From NCBI GenBank assembly GCA_030019025.1, contig JASEFR010000009.1:11444-58133 (forward strand): a stretch of 46,690 nt of DNA, in the 5' to 3' direction. A program made the position numbers and the translations under genes. This document shows positions 3,171 to 18,346 of this stretch, piece by piece (within the stretch, counting starts at the first letter, position 1; the number at the start of each line of letters is the position of its first letter). The stretch comes from a bacterium (GTDB taxonomy: Bacteria; Hydrothermota; Hydrothermia; UBA1063). Below the pieces are notes generated by a model. It had not been told where the DNA came from. It worked only from the letters and a program-made list of their open reading frames with translations, and searched no databases.

Positions 3171-4060
3171 TTCCCCTTATTGTTTTTTGCTACCTTTTCT
3201 TGAAGTTGTGTTCTCAGATGTTTAATATCCTCTCTAATAATAATTTCAAATTCCGGGATATTCCCAATTAGGGCTGGCTGGTCAATCTTTAATTTCTTTT
3301 TTACAACATCTAAAAGCTCTATGTCTATCTCATAACCAACTGCTTTTCTTCCTAATTCAAGGGCTACTTTTAATGTCGTCCCTGAGCCCAAAAATGGATC
3401 TAAAACAGTTTCTCCTTTGTATGAGAATAATTTTATCAATCTATATGGTATTTCTTCTGGGAATGCGGCTACTCCTTTCTCTAATCTGTTGTTAATAGGT
3501 AAAACATTTGTAATTTGCCATACATTGAGGTACCACTTTTCTTTTTGATATTCTTGAATGTCAATTTTTGATTCTTCTTTCAACTTTTCAGGAATTTTTT
3601 TGTAATCAAATTCACCATTTTGAAATATTAAGATAGATTCTTGGAGATTATCAGGGTAATAATACATAGGATATGGATGTTGTAGTAAAACACCACTTCT
3701 TCTACTTATCCGAATATATCCTTCTGGTTTAACCCAGACAATTCTTTCTCTATACTTGAATCCTTCTTCTATAAAGGTTTTGGTAATATCTGCAACTACA
3801 GGATATTTTTTCCCCTTTATTAAAGTATCATCTACTACAAAAGCTGCTATTCGTCCTTCATCCAAGACTCGTTTTAACTCTCTTGCTACATTCCTCATTA
3901 AACTTAAAAACTCGTCATAACTTTTAAACAAATCAGGATAGTCAAAAGGGGCATTAAAGTATGGAGGAGAGGTAACAACTAGATGGACGCTATTATCATG
4001 TAACTCTTTCATATTCCGAGCATCACCAAATATTATCATGTTTTTTGTCATATTCCTCAT
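3167..4060 (-). CDS. Type II DNA methyltransferase, beta class (N4-cytosine or N6-adenine)
   Basis: Two conserved motifs appear in beta-class order: the catalytic TSPPY (motif IV) near residue 30 and the AdoMet-binding DPFLGSGTT (motif I) near residue 222. The target-recognition region lies between them. TSPPY is common in N4-cytosine enzymes, though N6-adenine enzymes of this class exist. At 297 residues it has normal length. The frame opens at 4060, overlapping the relic upstream by ATGA. A second ATG at 4051 is better placed relative to AAGGAG (9 nt) and may be the true start. It is coupled by a 4-nt overlap to the endonuclease downstream; together they form a two-gene restriction-modification cassette between attC-like sites at 1931 and 4121. 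Confidence 0.88.
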   Translation of the reverse strand: MRNMTKNMIIFGDARNMKELHDNSVHLVVTSPPYFNAPFDYPDLFKSYDEFLSLMRNVARELKRVLDEGRIAAFVVDDTLIKGKKYPVVADITKTFIEEGFKYRERIVWVKPEGYIRISRRSGVLLQHPYPMYYYPDNLQESILIFQNGEFDYKKIPEKLKEESKIDIQEYQKEKWYLNVWQITNVLPINNRLEKGVAAFPEEIPYRLIKLFSYKGETVLDPFLGSGTTLKVALELGRKAVGYEIDIELLDVVKKKLKIDQPALIGNIPEFEIIIREDIKHLRTQLQEKVAKNNKGK

Positions 4061-4476
4061 CTCCTTAATATGATTTCTTTCATATTTTTAAATATTCTTA
4101 AGGCGGCGTGCGGAATTTCTGCTAACTCATTCATATACGCATTGCGTATATCATTCCAAGTTGGAGTTATATCCGCACTGCGCATATACTCATTCTGAAT
4201 GCTTCTCACCTCCATGCCCACAACGTAAGGCGAGTACGAAAGGCAGGTGCGCATCAACGATAGATAATATTTCAACGATTTTAATATCGCTTTCGGATTT
4301 ATAGCCCTTGTCCCTTTCTCTTCGTTGTTATAGTTTTTCTCAAACTTTTCAATATTTACTTTCTCTTCTACATACCTGTTAACTAATTTTTCTATAGAAT
4401 CTTCTTCAAACTGACTCGCAGGATCAATCATAAGAAAATATCCTGAATAATCTTCTACAGGTTTAAACCTTGCCAT
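4057..4476 (-). pseudogene. IS1182-like (DUF772) transposase N-terminal relic
   Basis: The first 85 or so residues (about 4476-4222) resemble the N-terminus of IS1182-family transposases. It starts MARFKP, contains a degenerate 'ID...QF....IE.LVNRYVEEKVNIEKFEKNYNNEEKG' stretch, and then AINPKAILK. A full transposase would be 450-550 residues with a DDE domain, which is absent. The rest of the frame simply reads through attC-like site 2 and the ribosome-binding region of the methyltransferase, so it is not conserved protein. The transposase appears to have been cut off where the attC-like site begins. Not expected to be functional. Confidence 0.65.
4121..4202 (-). repeat. attC-like site, class B with two palindromic arms (site 2)
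   Basis: GCTAACT opens the site at 4121 and CTGAATGC closes it at 4202. Between them are a palindromic arm ATACGCATTGCGTAT, a spacer TTCCAAGTTGGAG, and a second arm ATATCCGCACTGCGCATAT. The layout matches the sites at 6202 and 17694 although the arm sequences differ. Confidence 0.6.
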
Positions 4477-4512
4477 AACCTGATCCTGATTCTAAAATTT
4501 ACATTAAAAATA

Positions 4513-4722
4513 TTATAAAACAAGTCTAAAATAAAGGAAAGTCCTTATTAAATCAACAGGCAACAGCGGCCTCTCCTGCTCTTTAAATCGTATGAGCTGT
4601 GGATGGGCGGTATAGCCTTTTGTCTTTCCTTCAAGCACCGCTTTAGCCAGAAGACCTTCTTGCCAAAGGACAACAAGGCCCTTAGCATCGAGGTACTTCG
4701 GATGGAGCGACCAGAGTCTCAT
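4513..4722 (-). pseudogene. Truncated pyrimidine-dimer DNA glycosylase (T4 DenV-like)
   Basis: The first 48 or so residues, MRLWSLHPKYLDAKGL then LLAKAVLEGKTKGY and HPQLIRFK, match the start of the pyrimidine dimer DNA glycosylase/endonuclease V family (Pyr_excise). Those enzymes incise DNA at UV photoproducts and are usually about 140 residues or more. Here the frame switches after HPQLIRFK to an unrelated tail and stops at 69 residues, so the C-terminal half is lost. The start has GGAGG about 7 nt upstream and sits 35 nt from the attC-like box at 4757, as expected for the first gene of a cassette. It is probably a decayed repair gene; a short functional derivative cannot be excluded. Confidence 0.7.
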
Positions 4723-4756
4723 GGGTGTGCCTCCAGCACCAGTAGAAATCTCACAT

Positions 4757-4840
4757 TATAACGTTCTGCGGGTATACGAAGCCCTGAGCGAAGCGAAGGG
4801 TTTTGGTGAGCGTAAGCGAACCGCATACCCTCTTGTTGTC
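4757..4840 (-). repeat. attC-like recombination site, class A (site 3)
   Basis: TATAACG (to 4763) and GTTGTC (4835-4840) bound the site. GCGGGTAT near 4768 pairs with ATACCC near 4825, and inner GAAGCCC pairs with GGGTTTTGG. A GC-rich distal module runs on to about 4900, where the stop codon of the next gene directly abuts the GGGAACGT sequence. Confidence 0.68.
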
Positions 4841-4900
4841 AGAGTGCGTTAGCACCGAAGCTAGTGCCAGTGAGCGGAGAGTTGCGGGCGACGGGAACGT

Positions 4901-5104
4901 TCATTCTTCTTGTAGTTCTTTTTTTGGTAATTCTATTGGAGAGTACGTTATACGCTGCACTTCTAATTCGGAAGTATCATTTCTAACGGTAGCAAACATT
5001 TCGCTAGGAGTTGTGTCTATCAGTTGTAGCACTGAAACCAAACCCGAAGTGGTATTTGTTGATGCTATTGGCATCTTTATTTCTTTTTCTAACATATTTT
5101 TCAC
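4901..5104 (-). CDS. Small protein of unknown function coupled to the SDH-type protease
   Basis: A 67-residue product with a strong ribosome-binding site (TAGGAGG, 8 nt before ATG at 5104) lies just 3 nt after the stop codon of the SDH-family protease gene, so the two are surely cotranscribed. The sequence is rich in Thr, Ser and Glu, has no membrane segment or cysteines, and matches no family I recognise. It could be a substrate, adaptor or inhibitor of the protease, but that rests only on position. It is the last gene of the cassette; its stop codon abuts the distal module of attC-like site 3. Confidence 0.6.
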   Translation of the reverse strand: MKNMLEKEIKMPIASTNTTSGLVSVLQLIDTTPSEMFATVRNDTSELEVQRITYSPIELPKKELQEE

Positions 5105-5107
5105 CTC

Positions 5108-6130
5108 CTAGATAGTATTATCTAAAACCCAACCTTCTTGCAAAATCCTTTCTTGATACCCGATAGTATGTATTGGCATTCCTGGTTGAGGTACTTGAAT
5201 TCTTCTAATTTCTTTCTTTGTTCTGTAAACATGTGTTAAATCAGAAGATTCTATTATTGCCCTATTAAAATCAAATACTCCAAATTCTGATTTAGAAAGA
5301 TATATTTCGGGATTGTATGGTGTGTTTAGCTCCAGAATTCTGGAATAAGCGTCAAACAAATCTGTGATATCTCTCAAAAGGTCTTCTTGAGGTTCTTTAA
5401 TGTTTAATCCTAAAATTTCCTTAGCTTCTTTTCTTCCTATAATATAGTCGTGAGAAAATCTTTCACGAGTTATAATTTTCACAATTCGTTCTATTTTCTC
5501 ACAGTCATCAATGTGGTACCTTAGAAGGTTTGAAGCGAGAAAAGCTATTTGTTCTCTTGATCTCTGAACTGCTCCTAGGGCTAAAGGATGAACTTTCGTC
5601 CCCAGTAATTCAAAAACTTTTTTCATGGATTCTTCATTGTTTAGCCCAACTTCTTTTCTTGCTAAGTCTACAAAAGCATTAACATCCTCTACATTTACAG
5701 GTACAATTTGTCCAATAGGTTGGCCTGGAATTTGTATCATCGGTCCCAGTGGATGTTGGACCGAAGGATCGATGGGACTTAGTTGTCCCATTGGGGTCAT
5801 GATTACTTCATCAGCACCTAACGAGATTAAAGTAGCACAGCTTAAAGCTTTAAATGGTATGATCACATTAAATTCTTTACAAAATTCTCTAATTAAATTC
5901 ACCAGAGCGTATCCTGCAATAGTAATTCCTCCAGGACTGTAAAGGTAGAGGTCTATCCTCTCTTGTTTTCCTATACGCATTAAATGCTCATGAAACATAG
6001 GAAATATATCCATACCTATCCTTGTTTCAAGCCCCCTTCTATCGCCTGTTATATACACTAACAACCTTGAGTCACGTTTTTTCTCGATTTTCTTTATTAG
6101 TTCCATTCTTTTTGTTCTCTCCACTTTCAT
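5108..6130 (-). CDS. SDH-family (serine dehydrogenase proteinase) ClpP/SppA-fold serine protease
   Basis: A 340-residue protein when started at ATG 6130, which has AAGGAGG closely upstream. The longer frame to 6292 only reads through attC-like site 4. Family signatures are LYLYSPGG near residue 65, the oxyanion-type glycine strand of the ClpP/SppA clan. Next come KALSCATLISLGADE near residue 97, carrying the likely nucleophile Ser, then MGQLSPIDPSV near 115. These are hallmarks of the SDH_sah family (PF01972). The C-terminal third is helical. No signal peptide or membrane segment is evident, so it probably acts in the cytoplasm. It is coupled to the 67-aa gene. Fold assignment is well supported; substrate unknown, and a role in defence is only a guess from location. 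Confidence 0.82.
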   Translation of the reverse strand: MKVERTKRMELIKKIEKKRDSRLLVYITGDRRGLETRIGMDIFPMFHEHLMRIGKQERIDLYLYSPGGITIAGYALVNLIREFCKEFNVIIPFKALSCATLISLGADEVIMTPMGQLSPIDPSVQHPLGPMIQIPGQPIGQIVPVNVEDVNAFVDLARKEVGLNNEESMKKVFELLGTKVHPLALGAVQRSREQIAFLASNLLRYHIDDCEKIERIVKIITRERFSHDYIIGRKEAKEILGLNIKEPQEDLLRDITDLFDAYSRILELNTPYNPEIYLSKSEFGVFDFNRAIIESSDLTHVYRTKKEIRRIQVPQPGMPIHTIGYQERILQEGWVLDNTI

Positions 6131-6201
6131 ACCTCCTTGATTATCCCATATTCTCATGCTTTTGTTAAAGTTATCTTTCAGCCCGTCGTCCGCAATTTCG
6201 G

Positions 6202-6286
6202 ACAACTCGTTCATATCTGCAATGCAGATATTCTTCCAATTTAAGGGTATATACGCAATATTGCATATATACATACCTGTGGATGC
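6202..6286 (-). repeat. attC-like site, class B with two palindromic arms (site 4)
   Basis: ACAACTC opens the site and CCTGTGGATGC closes it, 2 nt before the stop codon of the recombinase relic at 6289. First arm ATATCTGCAATGCAGATAT is a perfect palindrome; second arm TATATACGCAATATTGCATATATA is nearly so; the spacer is TTCCAATTTAAGGG. A small hairpin GTCCG/CGGAC at 6188-6203 overlaps the left edge. Confidence 0.62.
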
Positions 6287-6288
6287 AA

Positions 6289-6512
6289 TCATGTTTTTTT
6301 CCTCTCTAAAAACTGAATCAAGAGGATTTTTATGTTTGTCAGGCTTGCCTTGCTTACATGAGTGTAAATTTCTGTCATTTTGCTGCTCTTATGCCCAAGT
6401 ATCTCCTTTTCCCCAATCTCAACTTTCACAGCAGGGATTTTGCCTTCCTGTGCCAATTTAAAAGGGTAGATTTTCCTATTTTCAAATATTTTGAGGCTTC
6501 CTCAAGGGTCAT
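6289..6512 (-). pseudogene. Tyrosine recombinase relic fused to an excisionase-type HTH (copy A)
   Basis: Reading from ATG 6512: [16 protein letters not shown] is an excisionase/MerR-like helix-turn-helix. A 1-nt frameshift follows at the next codon, then [10 protein letters not shown] in another frame. This joins directly to [18 protein letters not shown], the extreme C-terminus of a tyrosine recombinase with the catalytic His and Tyr region. The catalytic core (first Arg, HxxR box) is deleted. Copy B at 17829-18184 has the same HTH-recombinase fusion and a frameshift at the same place, so the fusion predates duplication. Nonfunctional. It sits immediately upstream of class B site 4, where an in-line integrase relic would sit next to its attachment site. 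Confidence 0.72.
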
Positions 6513-6564
6513 TACTTCAGAAAAACCTTCCCTCACACTTTTAATTCCTTTTGTGGCTATCATA

Positions 6565-6593
6565 TTTATAAAGCAAAAGAAACAAAAAGTCAA
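6565..6593 (-). promoter_or_regulatory. Sigma70-type promoter of recombinase relic A, reading into the array
   Basis: On the minus strand TTGACT (6588-6593), 17-nt spacer, TATAAA (6565-6570). Transcription would start near 6556 and run left through the relic toward the SDH cassette. The equivalent position in copy B also has a promoter-like pair. Confidence 0.6.
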
Positions 6594-6598
6594 GTCCT

Positions 6599-6671
6599 TT
6601 TTCAAAAATTTTTCCTTTTCGGTGAGGATTCATTATCAATCCAGAATAAAAAAGAGAGAATTTTATTTTTT
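6599..6671. repeat. 73-bp perfect repeat, copy A
   Basis: Identical base for base to 18274-18346. It lies just upstream of the promoter of each recombinase relic and contains a small inverted repeat GGATT/AATCC with a 7-nt loop. Weaker similarity extends rightwards through CCCTTGTGCGGAC and AAGTCGGGAAGATA to about 6725. No reading frame crosses it. Confidence 0.9.
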
Positions 6672-6718
6672 GCCTCCTCCCTTGTGCGGACAAGTCGGGA
6701 AGATACTTCGAAAGAGTT

Positions 6719-6967
6719 TTAAACAGCCATAAAAATACCTCCCCTGATTGACGGCTCTTTCAAAATCTGGACAGGGTTTTGATGGGCAAATTCTGGAAAT
6801 TCAAGAAATTCAATATCTACCTTATTGTTTAGGATTTTTACCTCTTTTATAAAAAGCCTTGCCAGTGCCCGCCTTTCCTTTGGTTCAAGTGAGGGATAAA
6901 CCTCATTAAATCCTTCAAATCCTTTCTTTATTATTTCAAAATCAATAACTGTGCTTTTTCTGATTAT
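6719..6967 (-). pseudogene. C-terminal relic of a large serine recombinase
   Basis: About 80 residues resemble the C-terminal end of large serine recombinases, which typically finish with a helical segment followed by a short strand pair. Visible here are EIIKKGFEGFNEVYPSLEP, then KERRALARLFIKEVKILNNK, then VDIEFLEFPEF. The resolvase catalytic domain, recombinase domain and zinc ribbon are missing. The frame continues upstream only through attC-like site 5, so the gene was truncated at that junction. Its stop lies at the edge of the repeat unit shared with copy B. Not functional as a recombinase. Confidence 0.55.
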
Positions 6968-7050
6968 AAGGTTCCCGGGTATTTGAAGTTTGTGATAGCA
7001 AATCGAGCGTAGGCGAAGGCAAAGCCACATATCTGCCCCGAGTGTAATAG
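6966..7050 (-). repeat. attC-like recombination site, class A, degenerate (site 5)
   Basis: ATAAGGTTC near 6966 and GTGTAATAGC near 7042-7051 stand for the outer boxes. The motif TGAAGTTTG with AGCAAAT and the GTAGGCGAAGGCAAAGCC secondary hairpin match the other class A sites. A distal module containing GAGAGTTCCG runs to about 7088, just before the methyltransferase stop at 7095. Confidence 0.55.
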
Positions 7051-7094
7051 CACCGGAGTGAACGTAAGCGAAGCGGAGAGTTCCGAACCTCTCT

Positions 7095-10000
7095 TCACTT
7101 TCCTCCCTCTATAATCTTCACCCATTCGTGGGATTTTATCTTTTCTATCCACTTATTGATTTCCTTATCCTCTCTCATTGATTCATAAACTTTCTTAATG
7201 GTTTTCAAATTCTCTTCTTCTAACCTTTCAAGTTCTTTTACTTCTTCTTCTGTCAATTTTCCTTCAAGTTGTTTTTTCCAGTAAAGTTCAGCCCAGCGAT
7301 CGTAGTTTATTTGTTTCAAGTGCTTTGAAACCGCTTGCAGGAGATATTCTTTTGGCTCTTTATACAATCCATCTTTTGCAAATTTTTCCTTGAAGTAGAG
7401 TTCGTAAACTAAGCAATCGGCAATCTGGCAATCAAAGTATTCAATCATCTCTTTAAGTTTTTGCCTTCTCTCTTCAGTGGCGTTGAGGAAGAGGAGATAA
7501 TCTGCAAAAATTTCGTATTTTTCTGTTTTTTCAGATAAGCGAATGGGGATTTTTTCAGTATATACTTTCTTGTATCTTGCAGTATTTTCCCCTAGATTAG
7601 TTCCACATAATCGTATTGCAATCCAAGACAACCTTGAATTAAGTAACACTAACAGTAGTTTTAAATTTGTCTTTTCTGAAGTTATTGTAAATGTTGTTGC
7701 CTCCCCATACATTTTTGATTGGTCTAGATAGAATGAAGGTTCTCTAACTATTTCCTGCCACACAATCTTTGGTTTTTCAAATTCTGAATAATAATCACAG
7801 GGTCTTAACTCCCACCAGTAGTCCCCTTGGTCATCTCTATTTACTAACCCTTTACCTCTGCCGGATTTTATGTCTTTAAACTTTTCAAAGTGAGAATATA
7901 TAGATGAGTACGCGTTCTTGAAAATTTCTTCAGCTTCTTCTAAATGTGCATTTCTCTTTATCAGTTTTCTAGTAAATCCTGCTGGGATTATAATCATCCA
8001 TTCATTATTCCATTCCACAAAATACCATCCAATATCTCTCCCTCTTAAAAGCGGTTTAATCAGCTCGGCACTCTTAGGATCTTCTTCAATTATCTTTTTC
8101 CTCGTTTCATCGTCTATAATAAATGCATCATTGAATCCTGTTTTGATTCCACAATAGATATTCACATCCAACTCTTTCAAAGGTTTTCCAACCTTTCCAA
8201 TCCATTTTTTAATTTCTTCCATTTCATCTCTTACGAAATCCCAGACATCATCGCTTAGGTTTGATTGTTTAACATAATATCCTCCTTGTTCAACAGCATC
8301 CCAGCTTTTTGGATGGTTATAGAAAATACGATTATCTTTTTCAGGCTCTTTCTTTTGGATTACATAAATGAGAGTGTCAACTGTCGCTCCAACGAAAACT
8401 CTGATACCGTTAAAGTCTATTACTTTTCTAATGGTAAAGTTCTCTCTCAGATACTTCCTAATCTTTGCTCCATACTTAGCTCTGAGCCATTTGTTGGTAA
8501 TGATAAAGGAATGATAGCCTTTGCCTCTTGTGGTTGAAAGGCTTCTTAAAATAAAAAACATAGAAAAGTCAAAAGTATTATCAAAAGGTTCGTAGATTCT
8601 TGAAAGAATTTCTTTATAGTTAACACCATCAACGATATGATTTATCCCTTCTTGTCTTACATACGGCGGATTTCCAATCACCACATCAAACCCACATCTA
8701 TCTAAAAACACCTCAGGAAACTCAAAAACCCAGTGGAAGGTTTGGATTTTCTTTAAATCTTCAAGTTTTATGTTATGTTCCTCTGCATACTTCTCATCTA
8801 ATTTCTCATTAAATAAATCTGTAATCTTTCTCAAGAGGTCATTGAGAGGCTGAGCGTATTGAGAGTTCAATGATGCAATTAAAATGGTTATGAGCTTTTC
8901 TTTTGTGCGTAAAACCTTTTCAAAGTCCTTCCAATCAATTTTCTTTTTTGCCAGTATTTCGTTAAGTTCTTCAACTTCCTTCACTATATTTCCATCAAGA
9001 TTAAGAGATTTTGCAGTTTTTTCAAGATATGGCTTTAGTTCAGCAACTACCTTTATCTCTTCTGTTATGTATTCGGCTTGCTTTTCCTCTACAAAGAAAT
9101 CAAGTTGAAGCTGTCCTTTTTGTTGCTCCTTGCCAAGCTCAACATAGCCTATAAGAGAATTTCCATCTCTCAAATTAAAATGGACATTGGGAAATCTTAT
9201 GAAAACTTCTTTTTCTTTGCCAGCCCTGAAATGCTTTGCCAAAGTTAAGAACAACCTTGCCTTTGCTACTTTCAAAGCAGAAGGATTTATATCCACACCA
9301 TAGATGTTCTTTGAAAGGATTATGAAGAATTTAACGAGAAGTTTAAATCTCTCTTCATCCGATAGCTCAAGTAAATTTATTTTTTTAATTTCGCCTTTCT
9401 CACCTGCTGTAATAATCTCTAAGCCCTTTTTCATATTCAATTCTATTGCTTTTTCCCTAATCTTCTCATATATGCTCACGAGAACATTTATCGCACTTTC
9501 AAGGAAGTGTCCTGAACCAACAGCAGGATCAAGGATTTTTATCTCTTTCAATTGCTCAAAAAGGCTGAGAAGAATTTCCTCATCATTACTCTCTATTACC
9601 TGATCAATTGATTCAAAGTTTTTATCAAATCTTTCATTAATTCTATCTACAAGATAGGGCTCAATGGTGTTTTTGCATATATAAGAAGTTATTTCTTCCG
9701 GCGTGTAATATGCACCGAGTTTTTTCTTTTCCATATATGCGATTAACTTCTCATAAATTGCGCCAAGAACAAATTCATCTATGTTGCCTTCTGTCCAATC
9801 TCTGCTTTCAAATAAATTGAGAAGAGGAACTTCCTGACTTACTTTCTTTGGTGGTGTGTTTATCAGAATGTCTGTCATTCCTTCTTCGTAGAAGCATTTA
9901 TCAGGAATTGATATAGATTTGCTGTGTTCACCATTCAAGAAGAGGGCTGGTCCTATAACAACTACTTTCCCAACAATTTTATCTTCATAATACTGGCTAT

Positions 10001-10682
10001 CCAGATTATTGCTTACTTTTTCAAAAAAATATGTGAGAAATTCATAATAGTTTTTGAATTCACCAAATAGTTTTTTTCGCTTAGACTCTTTAAATTCTTT
10101 AAATTTAGTGATGAAGTAGTTTTTATCGCTGTTGAAAAATCCTATTTCCTGCAAATACCAGAGGGTAAGCATCTGCATCATGAAATTATCAACAAACTCT
10201 TCCCTTCTCTCTTCCTCAGATATGCCTTTGATATTTTTAAGCAAATATTCTCTTGATTTTTTGAATAGAATATAGAATTCTTCAATTACATCGCTTCTAT
10301 CAAATAATTTGCTGAAACTCTCTTCTTTTGGATCACCCAGAGCTTCTTCGAGTTTGTTCAAAAATTTTTTGTTAATTTTCTTAAGAGTTTTTATTATGTG
10401 CTTATCCCTTCTGTAATCTTTGATGAGCAGATGATCATCATAAAGAATAATACCTATTCTTGGTGCATATCCGCTAACCGGCGGTCTATATCTGGTTTTT
10501 AAATAAGAAACCTCACTCTTGTCTTCCGTTTCAACAAATAGGAACCCTTCAAAGATATTCAGGTCTTCATCGCAAAATTCAGGAACAACATAAAGAGTAT
10601 ATTGTTTATCTGATATTTTAATGTTTTTTTGTTCGTATTTTTTAAGTTCTTTTTCTATTCTTTCTTTAACCTCAGACTTCAT
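7095..10682 (-). CDS. Large Eco57I-like N6-adenine DNA methyltransferase, partner of the PLD-helicase
   Basis: A 1195-residue protein with the AdoMet-binding motif ILDPAVGSGHFLES near residue 386 and the catalytic NPPYVRQEGI near residue 672. This is the order of gamma-type adenine methyltransferases such as Eco57I, PglX and type I HsdM. A TaqI-like specificity/target-recognition region follows (KPLLRGRDIGWY, TARYKKVYTEKIPI) with a coiled-coil C-terminus. Residues 1-330 are helical; I find no PD-(D/E)XK nuclease there, so it does not look like a self-contained type IIG enzyme. The cutting activity is more likely in the PLD-SNF2 protein encoded just upstream, which overlaps by 11 nt. Together they resemble the helicase-methylase logic of DISARM, BREX or type I systems. 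Function inferred. Confidence 0.85.
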   Translation of the reverse strand: MKSEVKERIEKELKKYEQKNIKISDKQYTLYVVPEFCDEDLNIFEGFLFVETEDKSEVSYLKTRYRPPVSGYAPRIGIILYDDHLLIKDYRRDKHIIKTLKKINKKFLNKLEEALGDPKEESFSKLFDRSDVIEEFYILFKKSREYLLKNIKGISEEERREEFVDNFMMQMLTLWYLQEIGFFNSDKNYFITKFKEFKESKRKKLFGEFKNYYEFLTYFFEKVSNNLDSQYYEDKIVGKVVVIGPALFLNGEHSKSISIPDKCFYEEGMTDILINTPPKKVSQEVPLLNLFESRDWTEGNIDEFVLGAIYEKLIAYMEKKKLGAYYTPEEITSYICKNTIEPYLVDRINERFDKNFESIDQVIESNDEEILLSLFEQLKEIKILDPAVGSGHFLESAINVLVSIYEKIREKAIELNMKKGLEIITAGEKGEIKKINLLELSDEERFKLLVKFFIILSKNIYGVDINPSALKVAKARLFLTLAKHFRAGKEKEVFIRFPNVHFNLRDGNSLIGYVELGKEQQKGQLQLDFFVEEKQAEYITEEIKVVAELKPYLEKTAKSLNLDGNIVKEVEELNEILAKKKIDWKDFEKVLRTKEKLITILIASLNSQYAQPLNDLLRKITDLFNEKLDEKYAEEHNIKLEDLKKIQTFHWVFEFPEVFLDRCGFDVVIGNPPYVRQEGINHIVDGVNYKEILSRIYEPFDNTFDFSMFFILRSLSTTRGKGYHSFIITNKWLRAKYGAKIRKYLRENFTIRKVIDFNGIRVFVGATVDTLIYVIQKKEPEKDNRIFYNHPKSWDAVEQGGYYVKQSNLSDDVWDFVRDEMEEIKKWIGKVGKPLKELDVNIYCGIKTGFNDAFIIDDETRKKIIEEDPKSAELIKPLLRGRDIGWYFVEWNNEWMIIIPAGFTRKLIKRNAHLEEAEEIFKNAYSSIYSHFEKFKDIKSGRGKGLVNRDDQGDYWWELRPCDYYSEFEKPKIVWQEIVREPSFYLDQSKMYGEATTFTITSEKTNLKLLLVLLNSRLSWIAIRLCGTNLGENTARYKKVYTEKIPIRLSEKTEKYEIFADYLLFLNATEERRQKLKEMIEYFDCQIADCLVYELYFKEKFAKDGLYKEPKEYLLQAVSKHLKQINYDRWAELYWKKQLEGKLTEEEVKELERLEEENLKTIKKVYESMREDKEINKWIEKIKSHEWVKIIEGGK

Positions 10683-13600
10683 AATACCACCCCACGTGCT
10701 TAACCCTGACCTTTAGAGATTCTATATCTGTGATCCCCTTCTCTCTAAAAAATTCATATAAAATTTCAATAACGCCCTTGAAATCTTTGATGATCACATT
10801 GTCTTTGTTTAAATCTATAATGTTCCTCTCTGTAAGCAAGTGTTTCATTTCTCTTGAATAAGAATAATGTGGTATGGTCTGAAGCGCAGTCATAACAACC
10901 TTAAATTTGTTTTCAATTCCCTCGGCTTTTTTCCTTTCTACAAGCAAAGCATTGAATAGGTTGAAAAGGAATCCCTTTTGCTCCTGTTTATAACCTTCTT
11001 TAAGCTCTTCCACGATTATCTCTGTCTTTTCTTTCATCCTCTTTAAATTCTCAATAGCATTTTCAATCTTCTGGGGCGCTTTTTCTCTCTTTTTAATCAA
11101 GTTAAGAAGGGAAAGAGGAGTCTCTTCGCGTATTTCTTCATCTTCTGATGTTGTGAGTATCTTTTTCATAATCTTGTACTTTCCGCGGTAGAATTCATAG
11201 ACACTCACGATCTTATCTTCACCGTCTATGAATGAATAATAAGGTCCATCTCCCATATTCATAACTTCTTTGAAATCCTCTGCTGTATAGTCAAGTTCAT
11301 ATTGAATTAAATTCAAAAGCTTATATTCATCCAGTTGTTCCTTCGGTATCCCTTCGGGGATAAACTGCTTGAAATCCTCCGAGACTCCATATTGTTCTAA
11401 ATCAGTCATGGAAAGCTTTGATATATCTTTGATTTTCTCGCCAAAGGTCTCTATGCTTATCTCTTCCTCTGGAGACAGTATTTTTACATCCTTACCCACT
11501 ATTAGAGTTATATCGTGTATTTTTTCCTTGAGCTTTTTAAGAATACCGACTATAACCTCTATTTCATAAGATGGAATGTAATTGATCACATAAACATCCT
11601 TTTCGTTGCCTATTCTGTTTACTCTTCCCACCCTCTGAATGATAATCATTGGATTCCATGGTAAGTCATAGTTTATGACCGCATCCGCATCTTGAAGATT
11701 TACTCCTTCGCTCAATGCATCAGTTGATATTAGAATCTCAATCTCTCCGAATTTTCTTACCTCCTCAAAACCATTATTTGATGAAGGAGCAAAGCGCTTT
11801 ATGTAGTTCATCTTTGCTGGGGTTTCTGTATCTCCTGTTACAAGGGCTATTTTGATTCTATCCTTTTCGTCCTTAAGCCATGGATGTAAGTCAGTTTCCT
11901 TACTTATCCACTCATTAAGATTATGATAGAGATAGTAGGCAGTATCTCTATACTGCGTGAAAATTACTATTTTTTTTCGATTCAATGATGGAATACCTTT
12001 ATTCTTTAATTCTTCTGACATATAGGAAGGATTTCCAATTATCTGCTTCAGAGATTCGAGTTTTGGATCCTGTGAATACACATATATTGGCAGGTCAACA
12101 ATATCTTCCTTCTCCCTTGGAATTTTGCCGATTTCCTTAAACTTTCCGTTCTCTATTTTTTTCAATTTGTCCAGTTCTGAAAATATGTTAGCCATAAATT
12201 TCAAATCCTTCTCTAAATTCTCAAGAACCTTCTTTAGTCCGAGTTTGAGCAGCTCAATGACGGGATACTGTTTTCTCTCATCTTTCAACTCCTCTGCATA
12301 TTCAAGGAGAATCTCCACCACTCTGTCAAACCATGTTTCTTCATTCTCTTCCTCTATATTGTATTCCTCCTCAATTTCCTCGAGCTCTTTTTCTATTTTC
12401 GCTTTCTTAACTGCGCTTATGATTAGATTCTTAAGAGAGTCTTCATTCAGGATTTTATCCATTTCTGCCTTGAATATTTCATAAAAGATTCTCTCTTTCT
12501 CATATATTCTCCTAAGAGTGGCCTCAAAGGGATATATTCCGCTTTCAAGCCTTTTACCAAGCAGAAGTTTAAACAGATCAGCTACCTCTATTAGCCTTTT
12601 TACAGGCTTTTCTTCATCAATGTTTTCTTCCTCAAAAACAACAAACCTTGTACCGTAGAGTTTTGTATGTTCAAACAAAATTCTATCAATATTGTCGCTT
12701 ATCGCTTTTATAAGAGATCTATATTCTTTTGTGTAAAATGGAGAATAATCAAGGCTGTGCGGCTTTGGATCTTTAAAAATAAGAGGTTTCCCGTTGACCT
12801 TGAGATCTGTGAACTGTTTCATAATGTATTTTCTTGTTCTAAGGACCATTATCTCGTTGAGGATCTTCTGCTTGATTTCTGTTGCAATCTTCTTTAGTTC
12901 CTTCCTGATATCATTGTCACCCCTTTTTTGTAACTCTTTTTTTAAATCTGTGTATTTTTTTATTAGCTCAACAATTGGGATGCCTTTGATTCTGAAAGGT
13001 GCAAAAGTATCATCTACAAAGAGTCTTATAAGATTGAAAATATCATTAATTGAATTGTTAAGAGGGGTTGCAGTAAGGAGAAGAAACTTATTTGGAAAAC
13101 CGTCCTCTTTTTTTTGTAACTTTCTAACATTTTCCCATCTTTTCGTATTCTTGTTTCTATACTTGTGAGCTTCATCTATCACAAAAAGATCGTACTCCTC
13201 TGCAATTTTCTTTAATTCAGCTTCTTTTAAGTTCTGAAAAATACCCAAGGAGAGAAAAGATATTTTTCCGAGAAGTTTCTTCCCAGATGAATCGTATATT
13301 TCGTAAACCCTGTGATTATATTCATCCTTCACAAGTTTATTAACATTGTCGCTTAAGAAAAGTTTGATTAGCAACTCTTCCCATTGAGATATTATTGATG
13401 GTGGAAGAATAAGCATCACACCAGAGGTTTTACCATTTGGCACCCATGTTGGGTGCTTTCCATTTAAAAACTCTTCTATTATAGCAGAAGCCATGAAACT
13501 TTTCCCAAGTCCTACCGAATCAGCTAAAATTACACCGTTGTAAAAATTGATCTTATCAACAGCATTTACCACACCTACAAGCTGAAATTCCATAAGAATG

Positions 13601-14349
13601 TCTTTTTTGAGGAGATTCAGTACTCTTCCTTCAAACCATCTACATACCAGATATTTGAAAAGTGTTACTGGGTCTACTAATTTTCCTATCTTGGGATAAG
13701 AGCTTTCGGGAAGTACTCCAGATACATCTATGATTTTCAACAGATCTTCTCTGAATTCTATTGACTCGTTCCATAATTGATCAAACCATTGATTTAGATA
13801 GAGAACATCTTCGCGCGAAGTGAGTAATACATTAAGCTCTTTGTTTTTAGTAAGACCTTCTGCTGTAAAGTTAGAAGAACCCACAACAGCTAATCCTGGA
13901 GAACCATACTTTTCTTCTGGTTGGGTTAAAAATAAATAAAGCTTGGCGTGCAATCTTGATTTATCAAAGAGTTTCACGTCTATTAAGTTATTGGCAATAA
14001 AATCCCTTAAAGCCTTCAATTGTCTTACTTGTGCCTCTGTAAACTCCGCTTTCTGTAAGTCTTCTATCATTCTTTGTTTAAATATCTCTCTAAGGTTGTA
14101 CCCCTCTACCAGTTCTTCTTTTGTTGGATATGTAGTTTCATTTCCCATCACAATTCTAAGAAATGGGTTCTTTTCATAATTTTCTGGAAAGTCATCTTTA
14201 ACAAGAGAAAATCCGCTCAGGAAGAAATATCCTATTGCAAATTTAGCCTCTCTTGATTTCTTTAATTGATCTTTCAATACTCTGATTAACTCTCTATTTG
14301 GAGAGTTATCTATTATATTTGGTGCAATTTTATCATTCATGTTTTCCAC
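10672..14349 (-). CDS. PLD-nuclease/SNF2-type helicase fusion, probable antiviral translocase
   Basis: A 1225-residue protein. The N-terminus is a phospholipase-D-like nuclease domain: HAKLYLF near residue 135 followed by GSSNFTAEGL near residue 158, one HKD motif as in Nuc/BfiI-type dimers. A superfamily 2 SNF2-like motor follows: ADSVGLGKSFMAS (Walker A) near residue 280, FVIDEAHKYRN (DEAH box) near 393, LLTATPLNNS near 430. The C-terminal lobe has STDALSEGVNLQDAD and QRVGRVNRIGNE near residues 880-910. Acidic, coiled segments (around residues 620-660) interrupt the motor. It is the first gene of a two-gene cassette with the adenine methyltransferase. Similar PLD plus helicase plus methylase combinations occur in defence islands; I infer a restriction-like system acting on unmodified DNA. 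Whether this exact pair has a name is unknown to me. Confidence 0.85.
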   Translation of the reverse strand: MENMNDKIAPNIIDNSPNRELIRVLKDQLKKSREAKFAIGYFFLSGFSLVKDDFPENYEKNPFLRIVMGNETTYPTKEELVEGYNLREIFKQRMIEDLQKAEFTEAQVRQLKALRDFIANNLIDVKLFDKSRLHAKLYLFLTQPEEKYGSPGLAVVGSSNFTAEGLTKNKELNVLLTSREDVLYLNQWFDQLWNESIEFREDLLKIIDVSGVLPESSYPKIGKLVDPVTLFKYLVCRWFEGRVLNLLKKDILMEFQLVGVVNAVDKINFYNGVILADSVGLGKSFMASAIIEEFLNGKHPTWVPNGKTSGVMLILPPSIISQWEELLIKLFLSDNVNKLVKDEYNHRVYEIYDSSGKKLLGKISFLSLGIFQNLKEAELKKIAEEYDLFVIDEAHKYRNKNTKRWENVRKLQKKEDGFPNKFLLLTATPLNNSINDIFNLIRLFVDDTFAPFRIKGIPIVELIKKYTDLKKELQKRGDNDIRKELKKIATEIKQKILNEIMVLRTRKYIMKQFTDLKVNGKPLIFKDPKPHSLDYSPFYTKEYRSLIKAISDNIDRILFEHTKLYGTRFVVFEEENIDEEKPVKRLIEVADLFKLLLGKRLESGIYPFEATLRRIYEKERIFYEIFKAEMDKILNEDSLKNLIISAVKKAKIEKELEEIEEEYNIEEENEETWFDRVVEILLEYAEELKDERKQYPVIELLKLGLKKVLENLEKDLKFMANIFSELDKLKKIENGKFKEIGKIPREKEDIVDLPIYVYSQDPKLESLKQIIGNPSYMSEELKNKGIPSLNRKKIVIFTQYRDTAYYLYHNLNEWISKETDLHPWLKDEKDRIKIALVTGDTETPAKMNYIKRFAPSSNNGFEEVRKFGEIEILISTDALSEGVNLQDADAVINYDLPWNPMIIIQRVGRVNRIGNEKDVYVINYIPSYEIEVIVGILKKLKEKIHDITLIVGKDVKILSPEEEISIETFGEKIKDISKLSMTDLEQYGVSEDFKQFIPEGIPKEQLDEYKLLNLIQYELDYTAEDFKEVMNMGDGPYYSFIDGEDKIVSVYEFYRGKYKIMKKILTTSEDEEIREETPLSLLNLIKKREKAPQKIENAIENLKRMKEKTEIIVEELKEGYKQEQKGFLFNLFNALLVERKKAEGIENKFKVVMTALQTIPHYSYSREMKHLLTERNIIDLNKDNVIIKDFKGVIEILYEFFREKGITDIESLKVRVKHVGWYYEV

Positions 14350-14378
14350 TTCCTTTCAATAGCGAGGCTCGGGATTTC

Positions 14379-14472
14379 GCCCAACGTTCCGGGGATGTGT
14401 GAAGTTTGCGGAGCATTAGCGGAGCAAATTTGGGCGTAGCCGAAGGCAGAGCCACATATCCTCCTGTTAAGT
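14379..14472 (-). repeat. attC-like recombination site, class A (site 6)
   Basis: GCCCAACG (14379-14386) and GTTAAGT (14466-14472) bound the site. Inside are GAAGTTTGCGG paired with GCAAATTTGGGCG and a GTAGCCGAAGGCAGAGCC hairpin. It is nearly identical in its core to site 1. A distal module with two hairpins (AGCCGTAGGCT; GGCAACGAAGTTGCC) extends to CAACGTTC at 14538. Together these fill the interval between the 57-aa gene and the PLD-helicase start. Confidence 0.72.
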
Positions 14473-14547
14473 GACCGAAGCCGTAGGCTGAGGCAAGGCA
14501 ACGAAGTTGCCGCAGAGTGCCCGCCGTCGCCAACGTTCTTGGTCATT

Positions 14548-14721
14548 TTAAGCCCCCGAGACATATTTAAAATCAATAAGTGTTTCTATAACTTGTTTGT
14601 CATCTACTTTTCCTTCAGTTAGGAGTTTTTGGCATATTTCTTTCCGTGTGTTATTTATTGCATCTATAACTTGTGGATTGCTAATTAACCAAACTTTATG
14701 ATCAAAAATCCTATCAAGCAT
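14548..14721 (-). CDS. 57-residue protein of unknown function, single-gene cassette
   Basis: ATG at 14721 has AAGGTGG 5 nt upstream; the frame ends TAA at 14548. The product begins MLDRIFDHKVWLISNP and looks like a small helical, charged, soluble protein. No signal peptide, membrane segment or recognisable motif. It sits alone between attC-like sites 6 and 7, so it is a typical short cassette gene. The longer frames overlapping it on either side run through the hairpin sites and are not credible. It could be an antitoxin-like or regulatory protein; nothing in the sequence decides this. Confidence 0.55.
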   Translation of the reverse strand: MLDRIFDHKVWLISNPQVIDAINNTRKEICQKLLTEGKVDDKQVIETLIDFKYVSGA

Positions 14722-14756
14722 TTTTCCACCTTCTTGGGTTATCGGCTATGATTTCA

Positions 14757-14835
14757 CTTAACGTTTTGCGGATAAAAGAGATTGTCGAAGGCAATTTGGG
14801 GAAATCTTTGATTTCCATTTTATCCGCTGTTATAT
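14757..14835 (-). repeat. attC-like recombination site, class A (site 7)
   Basis: CTTAACG (14757-14763) and GTTATAT (14829-14835) bound the site. TTGCGGATAAAAG pairs with TTTTATCCGC, an 11-bp outer stem. Inside are ATTGTCGAAGGCAATTTGGGG and a second hairpin GGAAATC TTT GATTTCC. A distal module with GGTGCGAAGCACC follows to about 14880. Confidence 0.78.
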
Positions 14836-14937
14836 GACCCGAAGGCAAGGTGCGAAGCACCACAGAGTCGTGAACGTAGGGCGACACTAATACAAGCATT
14901 TTCTTCCTCAATTCATATTTTATTTGCTTAAGATCCT

Positions 14938-15495
14938 CTACACTTTTCTCTTTGTGAATAAGAAAACCCTTTCTTGTTGACCCAAATAAATAAATCCGTT
15001 TCTTTCTACTGCCGTAACCAACTTTTTCTCTGATAGCCAAGGAGTTTTTTCAATAGAAAGTATACCTTCAGGTTTTAAAACACGATACAGCTCAGAAAGA
15101 ATATTCTCCAGACCTCCAGTATGATGAACAAAACCAAAAAGAAATGTAACATCAATACTTTCATCCGGAAGTCCGGTCTTGGTTACATCAGCAAGAATAG
15201 TTTTTACATTCTCTATCCCTCCTTTTTTTAACTTCTCTTGGACTCTTTTTATGGATAGAGGATGATTGTCCAATGCATAAATAACTCCTTTTTCATCTAC
15301 TATTTTTGCAGCCGGAATTGTAAAAAAGCCAGGGCCACACCCTACTTCCAGAACTTTTTGTCCAGGTTTAAGCCCAGCAGCTTTTAAAAGTTTATAAGGA
15401 TTTCTAAAAACCCACTGAAGCGGATTATCATGTATTAAGGACATCACCTTAAAAGCGAAACCAGGCGTTCTTTTCGACTTTGCCATACCTCTCAT
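14938..15495 (-). CDS. Class I SAM-dependent methyltransferase, UbiE-like
   Basis: A 185-residue Rossmann-fold methyltransferase. AdoMet motif I VLEVGCGPGFFTIPAA lies near residue 50, the acidic ribose-binding YALDNH near residue 73, and the post-catalytic LYRVLKPEGILSIEKTP near residue 138, as in the UbiE/Coq5 and ArsM group. The N-terminal FKVMSLIHDNPLQW has the small-molecule methyltransferase flavour, but the substrate is unknown. The start follows the frame-corrected stop of the upstream paralogue by 3 nt, so both form one transcript. A second ATG at 15486 is also possible. It is the second gene of the cassette ending at attC-like site 7. Confidence 0.85.
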   Translation of the reverse strand: MRGMAKSKRTPGFAFKVMSLIHDNPLQWVFRNPYKLLKAAGLKPGQKVLEVGCGPGFFTIPAAKIVDEKGVIYALDNHPLSIKRVQEKLKKGGIENVKTILADVTKTGLPDESIDVTFLFGFVHHTGGLENILSELYRVLKPEGILSIEKTPWLSEKKLVTAVERNGFIYLGQQERVFLFTKRKV

Positions 15496-15498
15496 CCT

Positions 15499-16102
15499 CT
15501 ACTTAGTCTCTTTAAAAAATGTGATTGCATAATGATATTCTCCTATCTCAGCAACTTTTTTTCTTTTTAAATCCATACTTGCTGATAATCTCCTCAACTT
15601 CTTCAGGCGCCAATCTAATAGATTTTGAAGGTCCCGGCGGACCATCAATTTTTTTAAAATCAATTATAGCAAGGCTCCCATTAGGTTTCAGCACTCTATA
15701 CATTTCTTTTAGTGCGCTTTCAACCTTCTTGTTTACATTAAGTCCATGTAGGATGTTTGCCATTAAAACCACATCTATACTTTCATCATCTATGGGCAGC
15801 TTTTTAGTTATATCCCCAGTGAATGCTTCAATGTTCTTGATATTGTGTTTCTTGATATTTTCTTTAAGAATCTTTATTGACTCTTTAGAAATATCAACTG
15901 CATATACTTTTCCGCTAACTCCAACAATCTCTGAGGCAGGAATAGAAAAACGTCCCTCCCCACATCCAGCGTCTAAAAGGGTGTCGCCCGTTTTGAGCCC
16001 AATTTCTCTAAGAGCCTTTTCGAAGTCGAAAAGGCTGCCAAAATGGCCCCTAAAACGGCCAGAGTCAAAGTAACGATGCTTTCTTTCAAATTCATTGCTC
16101 AT
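15499..16102 (-). CDS. Class I SAM-dependent methyltransferase, UbiE-like, frameshifted at an A7 run
   Basis: The frame from 16102 carries TLLDAGCGEGRFSIPASE near residue 40, VYAVDIS near 68 and YRVLKPNGSLAIIDF near 140, a clear UbiE-like fold. It stops at 15548 after KKKKSC. A run of seven A residues (T run at 15556-15562 on the plus strand) lies just before. Dropping one A continues the frame as VAEIGEYHYAITFFKETK to a TAG at 15499-15501, giving about 200 residues and a C-terminal strand typical of the family (YHYAI). So the gene is frameshifted, slippage-dependent or miscalled in the homopolymer. With the extension, the stop lies 3 nt before the next gene. It is a paralogue of the downstream methyltransferase. 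Confidence 0.8.
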
Positions 16103-16164
16103 TTTGTTACCTTCTGTTATTTATTATACACCTTCCCAATAGTCGCCCATAGTTCACGATTTCA

Positions 16165-16251
16165 TATAACGTCCCGAGTGTATCTGAAGTTCCCTGAAGG
16201 GGAATTTGGGCGGAGTGCCGAAGGCACGAAGCCAGATACGCTCTGTTTGGC
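16165..16251 (-). repeat. attC-like recombination site, class A (site 8)
   Basis: TATAACG (16165-16171) and GTTTGGC (16245-16251) bound the site; the lipoprotein stop at 16260 is 8 nt further. GTGTATCTG pairs with CAGATACGC. Inside are GAAGTTCCCTGAAGGGGAATTTGGGCG and the GTGCCGAAGGCAC hairpin. This is one of the cleanest examples. Confidence 0.78.
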
Positions 16252-16259
16252 GAAGTCTA

Positions 16260-16874
16260 TCATTTCTCAATAACATTTTCTTCAGTAAGTTTTTTTACAA
16301 CTACTTTTGCAAGCGAGTTGGCTAAAGTATTGTAATTAGCAAAAGCGTTACCTCTTGTAAACGATGTCGCTAACCAAGCAACTTGTCCAGATTTGCTATC
16401 AAACAAGCGAATTTCAAATTTAACTCTGGGCTTGGAAATATAATAGCCACCATTTTCTTGCGTATAGCTTTGATAATAAAGAGAGTTGCCGTACAACGAT
16501 ACACTACCTCGGGATGATGAACTCTTAGGAATATACGCCTGCGAGGTCCAGTAATCTTGCAATCTTACTACCAAAACCCCGTCTATATTATTTTGCTCCA
16601 AAATCTTTAATAACTCTTGCTCGTTATAATCTTTCACTGGTGGAATTAGCTCTATGCTAGAAACTGCATTAACACCTGACGAATTAAATTGCGCAACAAA
16701 AGCATTTTCAGTTTGCTTCCTTAAGCCTATATCTGAAAATGGAGCAACAACTAGGAGTTTCCTGAATTTTACTTGCGACAATTCTGGATTTTTGATGGTG
16801 TTTAGAGTCGTCCATGCACACCCTGATAAATAAAAGATAACTAACACCAGCGGAATTTGCTTAAAATGTTTCAT
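16260..16874 (-). CDS. Predicted lipoprotein of unknown function
   Basis: A 204-residue protein with a lipoprotein signal: MKHFKQIPLVLVIFYLSGC, with the lipobox LSGC giving Cys at residue 19. The mature part contains KLLVVAPFSDIGLRKQTENAF near residue 43 and NNIDGVLVVRLQDYW near 94. The middle region is rich in Ser and Tyr, and the C-terminus reads VKFEIRLFDSKSGQVAWLAT. This resembles the layout of periplasmic lipoproteins of the GNA1162/CsgG-like or DUF4136 type, but I cannot place it firmly. Ribosome-binding site GGGGAGG is 7 nt upstream. Single-gene cassette between attC-like sites 8 and 9. Exported products are common in integron cassettes. Confidence 0.72.
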   Translation of the reverse strand: MKHFKQIPLVLVIFYLSGCAWTTLNTIKNPELSQVKFRKLLVVAPFSDIGLRKQTENAFVAQFNSSGVNAVSSIELIPPVKDYNEQELLKILEQNNIDGVLVVRLQDYWTSQAYIPKSSSSRGSVSLYGNSLYYQSYTQENGGYYISKPRVKFEIRLFDSKSGQVAWLATSFTRGNAFANYNTLANSLAKVVVKKLTEENVIEK

Positions 16875-16897
16875 AATTTACCTCCCCTTAAAATTTT

Positions 16898-16977
16898 GCC
16901 TAACGTCCTGCGGATAAAAGAAGTTGCCGAAGGCAATTTGGACGAAACGTAGCGAAGCCTTTTATCTGCTGTTATAC
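16898..16977 (-). repeat. attC-like recombination site, class A (site 9)
   Basis: GCCTAACG (16898-16905) and GTTATAC (16971-16977) bound the site. On the minus strand this reads GGCGTATAAC ... GGACGTTAGGC, a textbook attC pattern. GCGGATAAAAG pairs with CTTTTATCTGC, with inner TTGCCGAAGGCAA and core AATTTGGACG. The stop codon of the upstream cassette gene is at 16989, 12 nt away. Confidence 0.82.
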
Positions 16978-17828: not shown

Positions 17829-18184
17829 TTATAAAGCGGGTTCTTTATTGCAAAAAGATTTTTTTGTGCTAACATGGGTGTAAATCTCTGTAGTTTTTGA
17901 ACTTTTATGCCCTAAAAGTTCCTGAATATACCGCAGGTCAATTCCACTTTCTAAAATATGAATGGCAAAACTATGTCTTAAAGAATGCACAGAATTACTT
18001 CTTCTTCCGGAAATCTTCTTTACTAACTCCTGATCACAAGAAATTATAACCTTATCGTTTTCCCCAATCCCAATTTTCACAGCAGGGATTTTGCCTTCCT
18101 GTGCCATTTTATATAGGTAGATTTTCCTATTTTTAAATATCTTACGCTTTCCCCAGTGGTCATTATTTCAGAAAAACCTTCCAT
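17829..18184 (-). pseudogene. Tyrosine recombinase relic fused to an excisionase-type HTH (copy B)
   Basis: From ATG 18184 the frame reads [20 protein letters not shown] then KST. A 1-nt frameshift follows, and then [13 protein letters not shown] continues in the frame that ends at 17829. This part retains [15 protein letters not shown] (the HxxR box) and [14 protein letters not shown] (catalytic His and Tyr). The first catalytic Arg and most of the core are gone, so it cannot recombine DNA alone. The C-terminus is typical of IntI/XerD-like integrases. The HTH resembles excisionase-family helices, giving an unusual HTH-integrase fusion shared with copy A. It is the right-most element of the array, the place expected for an in-line integron integrase. 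Confidence 0.75.
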
Positions 18185-18240
18185 CTTAGATTTACTTCTT
18201 TTGAATCTGCTAAAGTTCATCATCATTTAACGTTAATAAT

Positions 18241-18269
18241 AGCATATAGCAAAGAAAAGAAAAACTCAA
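18241..18269 (-). promoter_or_regulatory. Promoter-like pair of recombinase relic B, reading into the array
   Basis: On the minus strand TTGAGT (18264-18269), 17-nt spacer, TATGCT (18241-18246). It is weaker than the copy A promoter but in the same position relative to the 73-bp repeat. Downstream is the palindrome TTAACGTTAA at 18227-18236. Confidence 0.45.
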
Positions 18270-18273
18270 GCTA

Positions 18274-18346
18274 TTTTCAAAAATTTTTCCTTTTCGGTGA
18301 GGATTCATTATCAATCCAGAATAAAAAAGAGAGAATTTTATTTTTT
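18274..18346. repeat. 73-bp perfect repeat, copy B
   Basis: Identical to 6599-6671. Lower similarity continues to about 18408, next to the stop codon of the BatA-like gene at 18411, with a 6-nt insertion (CTGTGC) relative to copy A. The neighbouring HTH coding remnants are clearly more diverged than this noncoding block. Confidence 0.9.

What the first reader, a model, noticed from the sequence alone, without database searches (positions are those of the whole stretch)
7095..14349. 7.2-kb PLD-SNF2 helicase plus Eco57I-like methyltransferase pair as a candidate two-gene defence system
The pair combines an HKD nuclease domain fused to a DEAH motor with a 1195-residue adenine methyltransferase that lacks an evident nuclease domain; the genes overlap by 11 nt. 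The division of labour (motor-nuclease plus methylase) resembles DISARM, BREX and type I logic but lacks their other components. Its presence as one very large cassette is also unusual, since cassettes are normally under 2 kb.
Basis: partly seen in the sequence, partly recalled or inferred. Interest (0 to 1): 0.72.

Follow-up and report, generated by a model that had tools for sequence, protein, structure and literature searches.

The report
Two-gene motor-nuclease and methylase defence cassette
Two adjacent giant genes probably form a restriction-modification system, in which one protein marks the cell's own DNA and the other is a DNA-cutting motor that attacks unmarked DNA; the architecture is widespread and was already noticed elsewhere, and its unusual feature here is that the pair appears to travel as a very large integron gene cassette.

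Summary
The window encodes an HKD-nuclease/SNF2 translocase (start better placed at ATG 14340, 1222 aa) and a 1195-aa Eco57I/TaqI_C-type adenine methyltransferase, with an 11-nt overlap and intact catalytic motifs. The pair recurs across bacteria and archaea. In IMG/VR, 18 of 18 HKD-positive relatives with enough flank have the methylase beside them. No third gene is general. DUF499 is absent from all 26 genomes or records tested, so this is not Hma/BREX-related type 2; no DISARM DrmB is present. Helicase and methylase body co-evolve (r=0.78), while the methylase target-recognition region is swapped between close relatives, and three relatives carry inverted spare recognition modules beside an invertase. 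Literature homologues methylate asymmetric sites (GAm6AGGC, GGYGAB). Best reading: an ATP-dependent, sequence-specific restriction-modification system that works like a split Type ISP enzyme with an HKD nuclease. The architecture was predicted in 2018 on Lactococcus plasmid pLd8 but, as far as I found, is unnamed. Cleavage and phage defence are unproven. The pair lies in an integron-like attC array with other defence genes, as a ~7.4-kb apparent cassette whose 3' attC is decayed.

The parts
10672..14340 (-). HKD-nuclease/SNF2-type translocase, 1222 aa from ATG (GTG start at 14349 also possible)
   Evidence: 74% identical pair member in Thermotogaceae L021
13756..14073 (-). PLD/HKD nuclease domain (NgoFVII-like, a single HKD motif, so dimerisation is expected)
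   Evidence: Pfam PF13091 and PF09565; H134, K136, G157-S-S-N160, E171 invariant
12988..13542 (-). SNF2 ATPase lobe 1 (Walker A, DEAH)
   Evidence: PF00176
11608..11985 (-). Helicase_C, RecA lobe 2
   Evidence: PF00271
10672..11490 (-). C-terminal region of the helicase, unknown fold, possible methylase contact (inference)
   Evidence: conserved in L021; model too poor to use
7095..10682 (-). Adenine-N6 DNA methyltransferase, Eco57I/MmeI/PglX-like, 1195 aa
   Evidence: homologous to BrxX (9ewz), BseCI (7qw5) and MmeI (5hr4)
8394..9531 (-). Catalytic methylase core (DPAVGSG to NPPY)
   Evidence: PF07669 and conserved motifs
7542..8339 (-). Target-recognition region (includes TaqI_C), swapped relative to L021
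14379..14472 (+). attC-like site directly upstream of the pair (folds on the strand given; cassettes read on the minus strand)
   Evidence: covariation; 73.1 bits (training member)
6964..7047 (+). Decayed attC-like site just downstream of the methylase; conserved core GTT reads CTT
   Evidence: 15.3 bits, E 0.21; 34-nt 85% repeat of the upstream site

Best explanation
A two-gene, ATP-dependent restriction-modification system that works like a split Type ISP ('half Type I') enzyme. The methylase finds a short asymmetric site through its C-terminal recognition region and puts m6A on one strand, marking self. When a site is unmethylated, the methylase-helicase complex uses the SNF2 motor to translocate along DNA, and the HKD domain of the same polypeptide, probably active only as a dimer, cuts when two complexes meet or stall. 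Shown here: the domains and intact motifs, consistent pairing, co-evolution and exchange of the recognition region. Shown by others for homologues: asymmetric m6A. Inferred: complex formation, translocation, cleavage, phage restriction.
For: Domains and catalytic residues are intact. Forty loci carry both proteins, in Thermotogota, Cyanobacteriota, Deinococcota, Bacillota, haloarchaea, Methanococcales, the window's own phylum and IMG/VR contigs. In IMG/VR loci with at least 4 kb on each side, 18/18 HKD-positive helicases have the methylase and 0/29 HKD-negative relatives do. Helicase and methylase-body identities correlate at r=0.78 (0 of 2000 permutations reach it; r=0.73 without close pairs), against r=0.34 for the recognition region. 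Recognition regions are exchanged while the rest is conserved: window vs L021 helicase 74%, methylase body 68%, recognition part 30%; L093 vs L099 87/70/23%. Perfect inverted repeats of 261 nt (L067), 101 nt (L105) and 23 nt (L048) link the methylase recognition region to a spare inverted copy beside a serine invertase. M.Ssp6803IV, by elimination the pSYSX methylase in the same locus as an HKD-SNF2 gene, gives GAm6AGGC at 99.6% of sites (PMC7296061, PMC6604393). Pin17FIII, downstream of a SNF2 gene, gives GGYGAB m6A in E. coli (PMC5608340). Neighbouring genes are a type II R-M system and an Avs2-like STAND protein.
Against: No cleavage, translocation or phage assay exists for this locus, and none was found for relatives. 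The Synechocystis methylase is only 24-28% identical to this one by segment, and the Prevotella one was not compared. The P. intermedia SNF2 protein was not examined here for an HKD domain. The HKD-negative comparison group is one clade, so the Fisher p-value overstates independence. A cryptic nuclease in the methylase N-terminus cannot be excluded.
Confidence: 0.75

Rival explanations
1. BREX/DISARM-like exclusion: the helicase and methylase block phage DNA replication or injection without cutting DNA, and the HKD domain plays a structural or processing role.
For: The methylase is homologous to BrxX/PglX and the helicase to DrmD and BrxH.
Against: The HKD residues are strictly conserved in the paired helicases. 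The BREX and DISARM partners are missing here, and the genome's single PglZ hit is on another contig.
Confidence: 0.12
2. A Type IIG-like enzyme: the methylase polypeptide both modifies and cuts through a degenerate N-terminal nuclease fold, and the SNF2 gene is an accessory.
For: PADLOC and REBASE-style calls label such methylases IIG. The weak N-terminal model has an alpha-beta-beta-beta-alpha-beta order, and the window carries an E53-D-K55 tripeptide.
Against: The E-x-K tripeptide is not conserved beyond L021 and model confidence is very low. The HKD nuclease in the partner is strictly conserved.
Confidence: 0.08
3. Epigenetic switch: the main role is regulatory methylation with a changeable target, and the helicase remodels or regulates access rather than restricting foreign DNA.
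For: Inverted recognition modules with invertases in L048, L067 and L105 would switch methylation patterns.
Against: The HKD nuclease and motor residues are conserved. This locus has no spare recognition module, and its neighbours are defence genes.
Confidence: 0.05

Closest known systems
Putative type II R-M orf33/orf34 of Lactococcus lactis pLd8 (PMC6098607)
   Same: Adjacent PLD-SNF2-Helicase_C protein and IIG-type m6A methylase with TaqI_C region and no nuclease domain; same reasoning about division of labour
   Different: Helicase about 31-33% identical by segment; gene order reversed, methylase first; plasmid context; never assayed
M.Ssp6803IV locus of Synechocystis pSYSX (GAm6AGGC)
   Same: HKD-SNF2 helicase and homologous methylase in one locus; asymmetric m6A
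   Different: About 24-34% identity by segment; two small genes, one VapC-like, lie between
Pin17FIII of Prevotella intermedia (GGYGAB)
   Same: IIG-type methylase with upstream SNF2 helicase in a 7.6-kb mobile locus; m6A shown in E. coli
   Different: Has a spare downstream fragment on the opposite strand; HKD domain of its SNF2 protein not checked here
Type ISP enzymes (LlaGI, LlaBIII)
   Same: Nuclease + translocase + gamma-MTase + C-terminal recognition domain; continuous asymmetric sites
   Different: One polypeptide with an Mrr-like nuclease; here two polypeptides with an HKD nuclease
BREX-related Type-2 (Hma-like) systems (PMC12839542)
   Same: N-terminal HKD nuclease fused to a Swi2/Snf2 helicase, plus N6-methylase
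   Different: Those systems are defined by a DUF499 ATPase and nearly always a DUF3780 protein; DUF499 is absent from this genome and the other 25 genomes or records tested
Class I DISARM and ARMADA
   Same: SNF2-type helicase beside a PglX-like methylase
   Different: They also carry DrmA/DrmB or YprA-family helicases; no MZB (DrmB-type) domain in this genome

Membership tests
HKD-SNF2 + IIG-type methylase pair (pLd8 orf33/34 type, unnamed) | PLDc-SNF2-Helicase_C protein adjacent to an Eco57I/TaqI_C methylase without a nuclease motif | tested here: met
BREX-related Type-2 / Hma | DUF499 ATPase | tested here: not met
   PF04465: no match in the own genome (98.9% complete) or in the 25 other genomes and records tested
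BREX-related Type-2 / Hma | HKD nuclease replacing TUDOR at the helicase N-terminus, plus N6-methylase | tested here: met
DISARM | DrmB (DUF1998/MZB) with DrmA | tested here: not met
   PF09369 absent from the genome
BREX | PglX with PglZ and BrxC in one locus | tested here: not met
   the only PglZ match is on contig C1, not near C9; the PglX model cut-off (500 bits) is missed, 92.9 bits; BrxC not searched
Type ISP | Nuclease, translocase, methylase and recognition domain in one chain, Mrr-like nuclease | tested here: not met
   two chains, HKD nuclease
Type ISP | Asymmetric site, ATP-dependent translocation, head-to-head cleavage | not testable with these tools
   asymmetric methylation known only for distant homologues
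Type I | Separate HsdS specificity subunit | tested here: not met
   the recognition region is part of the methylase; no HsdS match among the neighbouring genes scanned
Type IIG | Nuclease domain in the methylase chain | tested here: inconclusive
   no conserved motif, but the fold of the N-terminus is unresolved
Integron gene cassette | Flanked by attC sites that fold on the bottom strand | tested here: inconclusive
   strong 5' site (a training member); the 3' site is decayed, 15 bits, E 0.21
Integron gene cassette | Functional integron integrase in the genome | tested here: not met
   best integrase matches are fragments (C11 with stops, C9 fragment); the two full-length genes stay far below the TIGR02249 cut-off and look XerC/D-like

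The most novel reading that the evidence does not exclude
The pair defines a separate, unnamed class of ATP-dependent R-M systems, a split Type ISP with an HKD nuclease, shared across bacteria and archaea, with recognition regions exchanged by recombination and in some lineages by site-specific inversion; here it was captured and moved as one 7.4-kb integron cassette within an attC-linked defence array. Inversion would also explain the unassigned extra motifs (GGNYAG, CCNYAG) of P. intermedia 17F.
Probability: 0.5. Interest if true: 0.6.

Novelty: new member of a known kind. Interest (0 to 1): 0.42.

Why it matters
Annotation tools would likely call the methylase alone a Type IIG enzyme and leave its motor-nuclease partner unassigned, although the two go together in the loci examined. 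Recognising the pair gives each such methylase a testable restriction partner, offers an explanation for multi-motif methylomes through recognition-region inversion, and suggests that integron-like arrays can hold multi-gene, multi-kilobase defence units.

Tried and rejected
Filing as Hma/BR type 2, DISARM, BREX, Type I or strict Type ISP: a defining feature is absent (see membership table). Folding the methylase N-terminus and the helicase C-terminus with a two-sequence alignment: pLDDT 39 and 42, not used, no fold search made. Origin of the PADLOC label C3a139: no paper found. A recalled PADLOC class 'RM_type_HNS': no trace found, not used. Third-gene requirement: neighbours clustered, none general; an SMC-like ATPase in 5 loci, a Schlafen/AlbA-like ATP-binding protein in 4, resolvase/invertase in 5, tyrosine integrases in 7 of 60 (the names of these clusters are read from sequence, and for L021 from Pfam). 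attC flanks in the Thermotogae and Archaeoglobales copies: none found with this model. Searches centred on relatives' genomes through loci: not accepted.

Full report
Observation. The two genes are present as described. The upstream gene (10672-14349, minus strand) encodes an HKD/PLD nuclease domain followed by an SNF2-type motor; the downstream gene (7095-10682) encodes an Eco57I-type adenine methylase with a TaqI_C-like recognition region. All catalytic motifs are intact and conserved in relatives. The ATG at 14340 has an AGGA box and matches the start of the closest relative, so I prefer a 1222-aa helicase. The 11-nt overlap is conserved in the Thermotogaceae copy. The methylase has no nuclease motif conserved over 40 homologues; its N-terminal fold stays unresolved because the structure model was poor.

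Relatives. The closest copies are in Thermotogota (helicase 74% full length; an 81% fragment at a contig end) and Archaeoglobales (65%, contig end), which points to transfer between thermophiles across the bacteria/archaea divide. More distant pairs occur in the window's own phylum, on plasmids of haloarchaea, Methanothermococcus, Thermus, Deinococcus, Nostoc, Synechocystis, lactic acid bacteria and Pelobacter, and on IMG/VR contigs. Haloarchaeal copies have the two genes convergent, so co-transcription is not essential to the pairing. In Thermococcus profundus, Nostoc and Deinococcus several genes lie between the two.

Is the pair the unit? In IMG/VR loci with at least 4 kb on both sides, 18 of 18 helicases with the HKD motif have the methylase and 0 of 29 without it do. 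The HKD-negative group is a single clade (support 0.998) nested among HKD-positive ones, so this is strong for pairing but counts as few independent losses. No additional neighbour family is general. DUF499, the anchor of Hma/BREX-related systems, is missing from the own genome and from the 25 other genomes and records tested. One relative in the same phylum, L038, is a true HmaA/HmaB locus whose partner methylase is not detected by the pair's methylase profile, which shows that the two kinds can be told apart.

Function. Helicase identities and methylase-body identities correlate at r=0.78 (no permutation of 2000 reached it), the recognition region only at 0.34. Window and L021 share 74% of the helicase and 68% of the methylase body but 30% of the recognition part; L093 and L099 share 87%, 70% and 23%. 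This is the pattern of changing target specificity with a conserved machine. In three relatives (L048, L067, L105) a spare, inverted recognition module with perfect inverted repeats of 23 to 261 nt lies beside a serine invertase. pSYSX of Synechocystis carries two annotated methylase loci; one is the Type I system, so the one in the HKD-SNF2 locus should be M.Ssp6803IV, which methylates GAm6AGGC at 99.6% of sites (PMC7296061, PMC6604393). Pin17FIII of P. intermedia, with an upstream SNF2 gene and a downstream fragment on the opposite strand, gives GGYGAB in E. coli, and two more motifs in that strain remained unassigned (PMC5608340); inversion of the recognition module would explain them (inference). 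One-strand methylation of an asymmetric site raises a self-protection problem that pairs of head-to-head sites would solve, and Type ISP enzymes do need two head-to-head sites for cleavage (PMC3874165). I therefore infer a split Type ISP-like mechanism with a dimerising HKD nuclease in place of the Mrr-like one.

Precedent and novelty. PMC6098607 described the same organisation on pLd8 in 2018 as a putative type II R-M system and proposed the PLD domain as the nuclease. PADLOC has a full-length HKD+Snf2 model (537 bits). No system named for exactly this pair was found in the papers searched; the library holds open-licence papers only. I rate it a new member of a known, unnamed kind.

Context. 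Seven attC-like sites lie at 1930-16976 in the window on one strand. Five were used to build a covariance model that shows compensatory changes in 11 of 22 pairs. Two sites not used in the model, C9:9382-9470 and C17:32150-32239, were then found at 48 and 45 bits, and window 4756-4839 at 27 bits. The pair lies between the site at 14379-14472 and a decayed one at 6964-7047. Cassette-like intervals in the array run from about 0.4 to 4 kb, apart from the 7.4 kb of the pair. Other intervals hold a type II R-M set and a split Avs2-like STAND gene. Only integrase fragments and XerC/D-like genes were found, so the array is probably immobile now unless an integrase is supplied in trans or sits in an assembly gap.

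Limits. No experiment exists on this locus; the host phylum is not named by the tools; identities to the characterised methylases are low; the 3' cassette boundary is weakly supported.

Noticed in passing
window 1930-2018, 4756-4839, 6964-7047, 14379-14472, 14756-14834, 16164-16250, 16898-16976 (+ strand fold); C9:9382-9470; C17:32150-32239: An integron-like attC array with covarying stems and a conserved AATTTGG centre; no intact integron integrase found.
   Followed up: partly
window 17829-18107(-) and about 6359-6551(-); repeats 6404-6741 and 18055-18422: Two partly duplicated stretches (80-89% identical) holding tyrosine-recombinase C-terminal fragments, one on each side of the array section that holds the pair; possible integron-integrase relics.
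   Followed up: partly
window 2103-4476(-): A complete type II R-M set (methylase 3167-4060, REase 2103-3170 at 351 bits to a PADLOC REase_II model, plus a 139-aa gene) in its own attC-flanked interval.
   Followed up: partly
window 2-1885(-), continuing to C9:9487-11400: Avs2-like STAND NTPase (535 bits) that begins at Avs2 profile position 169, so it seems to lack the N-terminal effector part, and is split into two frames; attC-flanked.
   Followed up: partly
window 5108-6292(-); L059 8795-9748(-): ClpP-like SDH serine protease near the pair in the window and near one distant relative; two of 60 loci, possibly chance.
   Followed up: no
L063-L065, L070-L079, L081-L092, L108-L134 (most): A clade of SNF2 proteins on viral contigs, nested within the HKD-positive family, without HKD motif and without any methylase nearby; may be phage proteins derived from the restriction motor.
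   Followed up: partly
L067 13594-13854/15144-15404; L105 13482-13582/15152-15252; L048 7981-8003/9370-9392: Perfect inverted repeats joining the methylase recognition region to a spare inverted copy next to a serine invertase: probable phase-variable specificity.
   Followed up: partly
L136 (contig C11) 919-1422 and 1-816: A broken integron-integrase-like gene with a Mod-like DNA methylase gene downstream, on another contig of the same genome.
   Followed up: no
L021 16081-19209: In the Thermotogaceae copy the pair is followed at once by an SMC-like ATPase and an OLD-like TOPRIM ATPase, absent from the window.
   Followed up: partly
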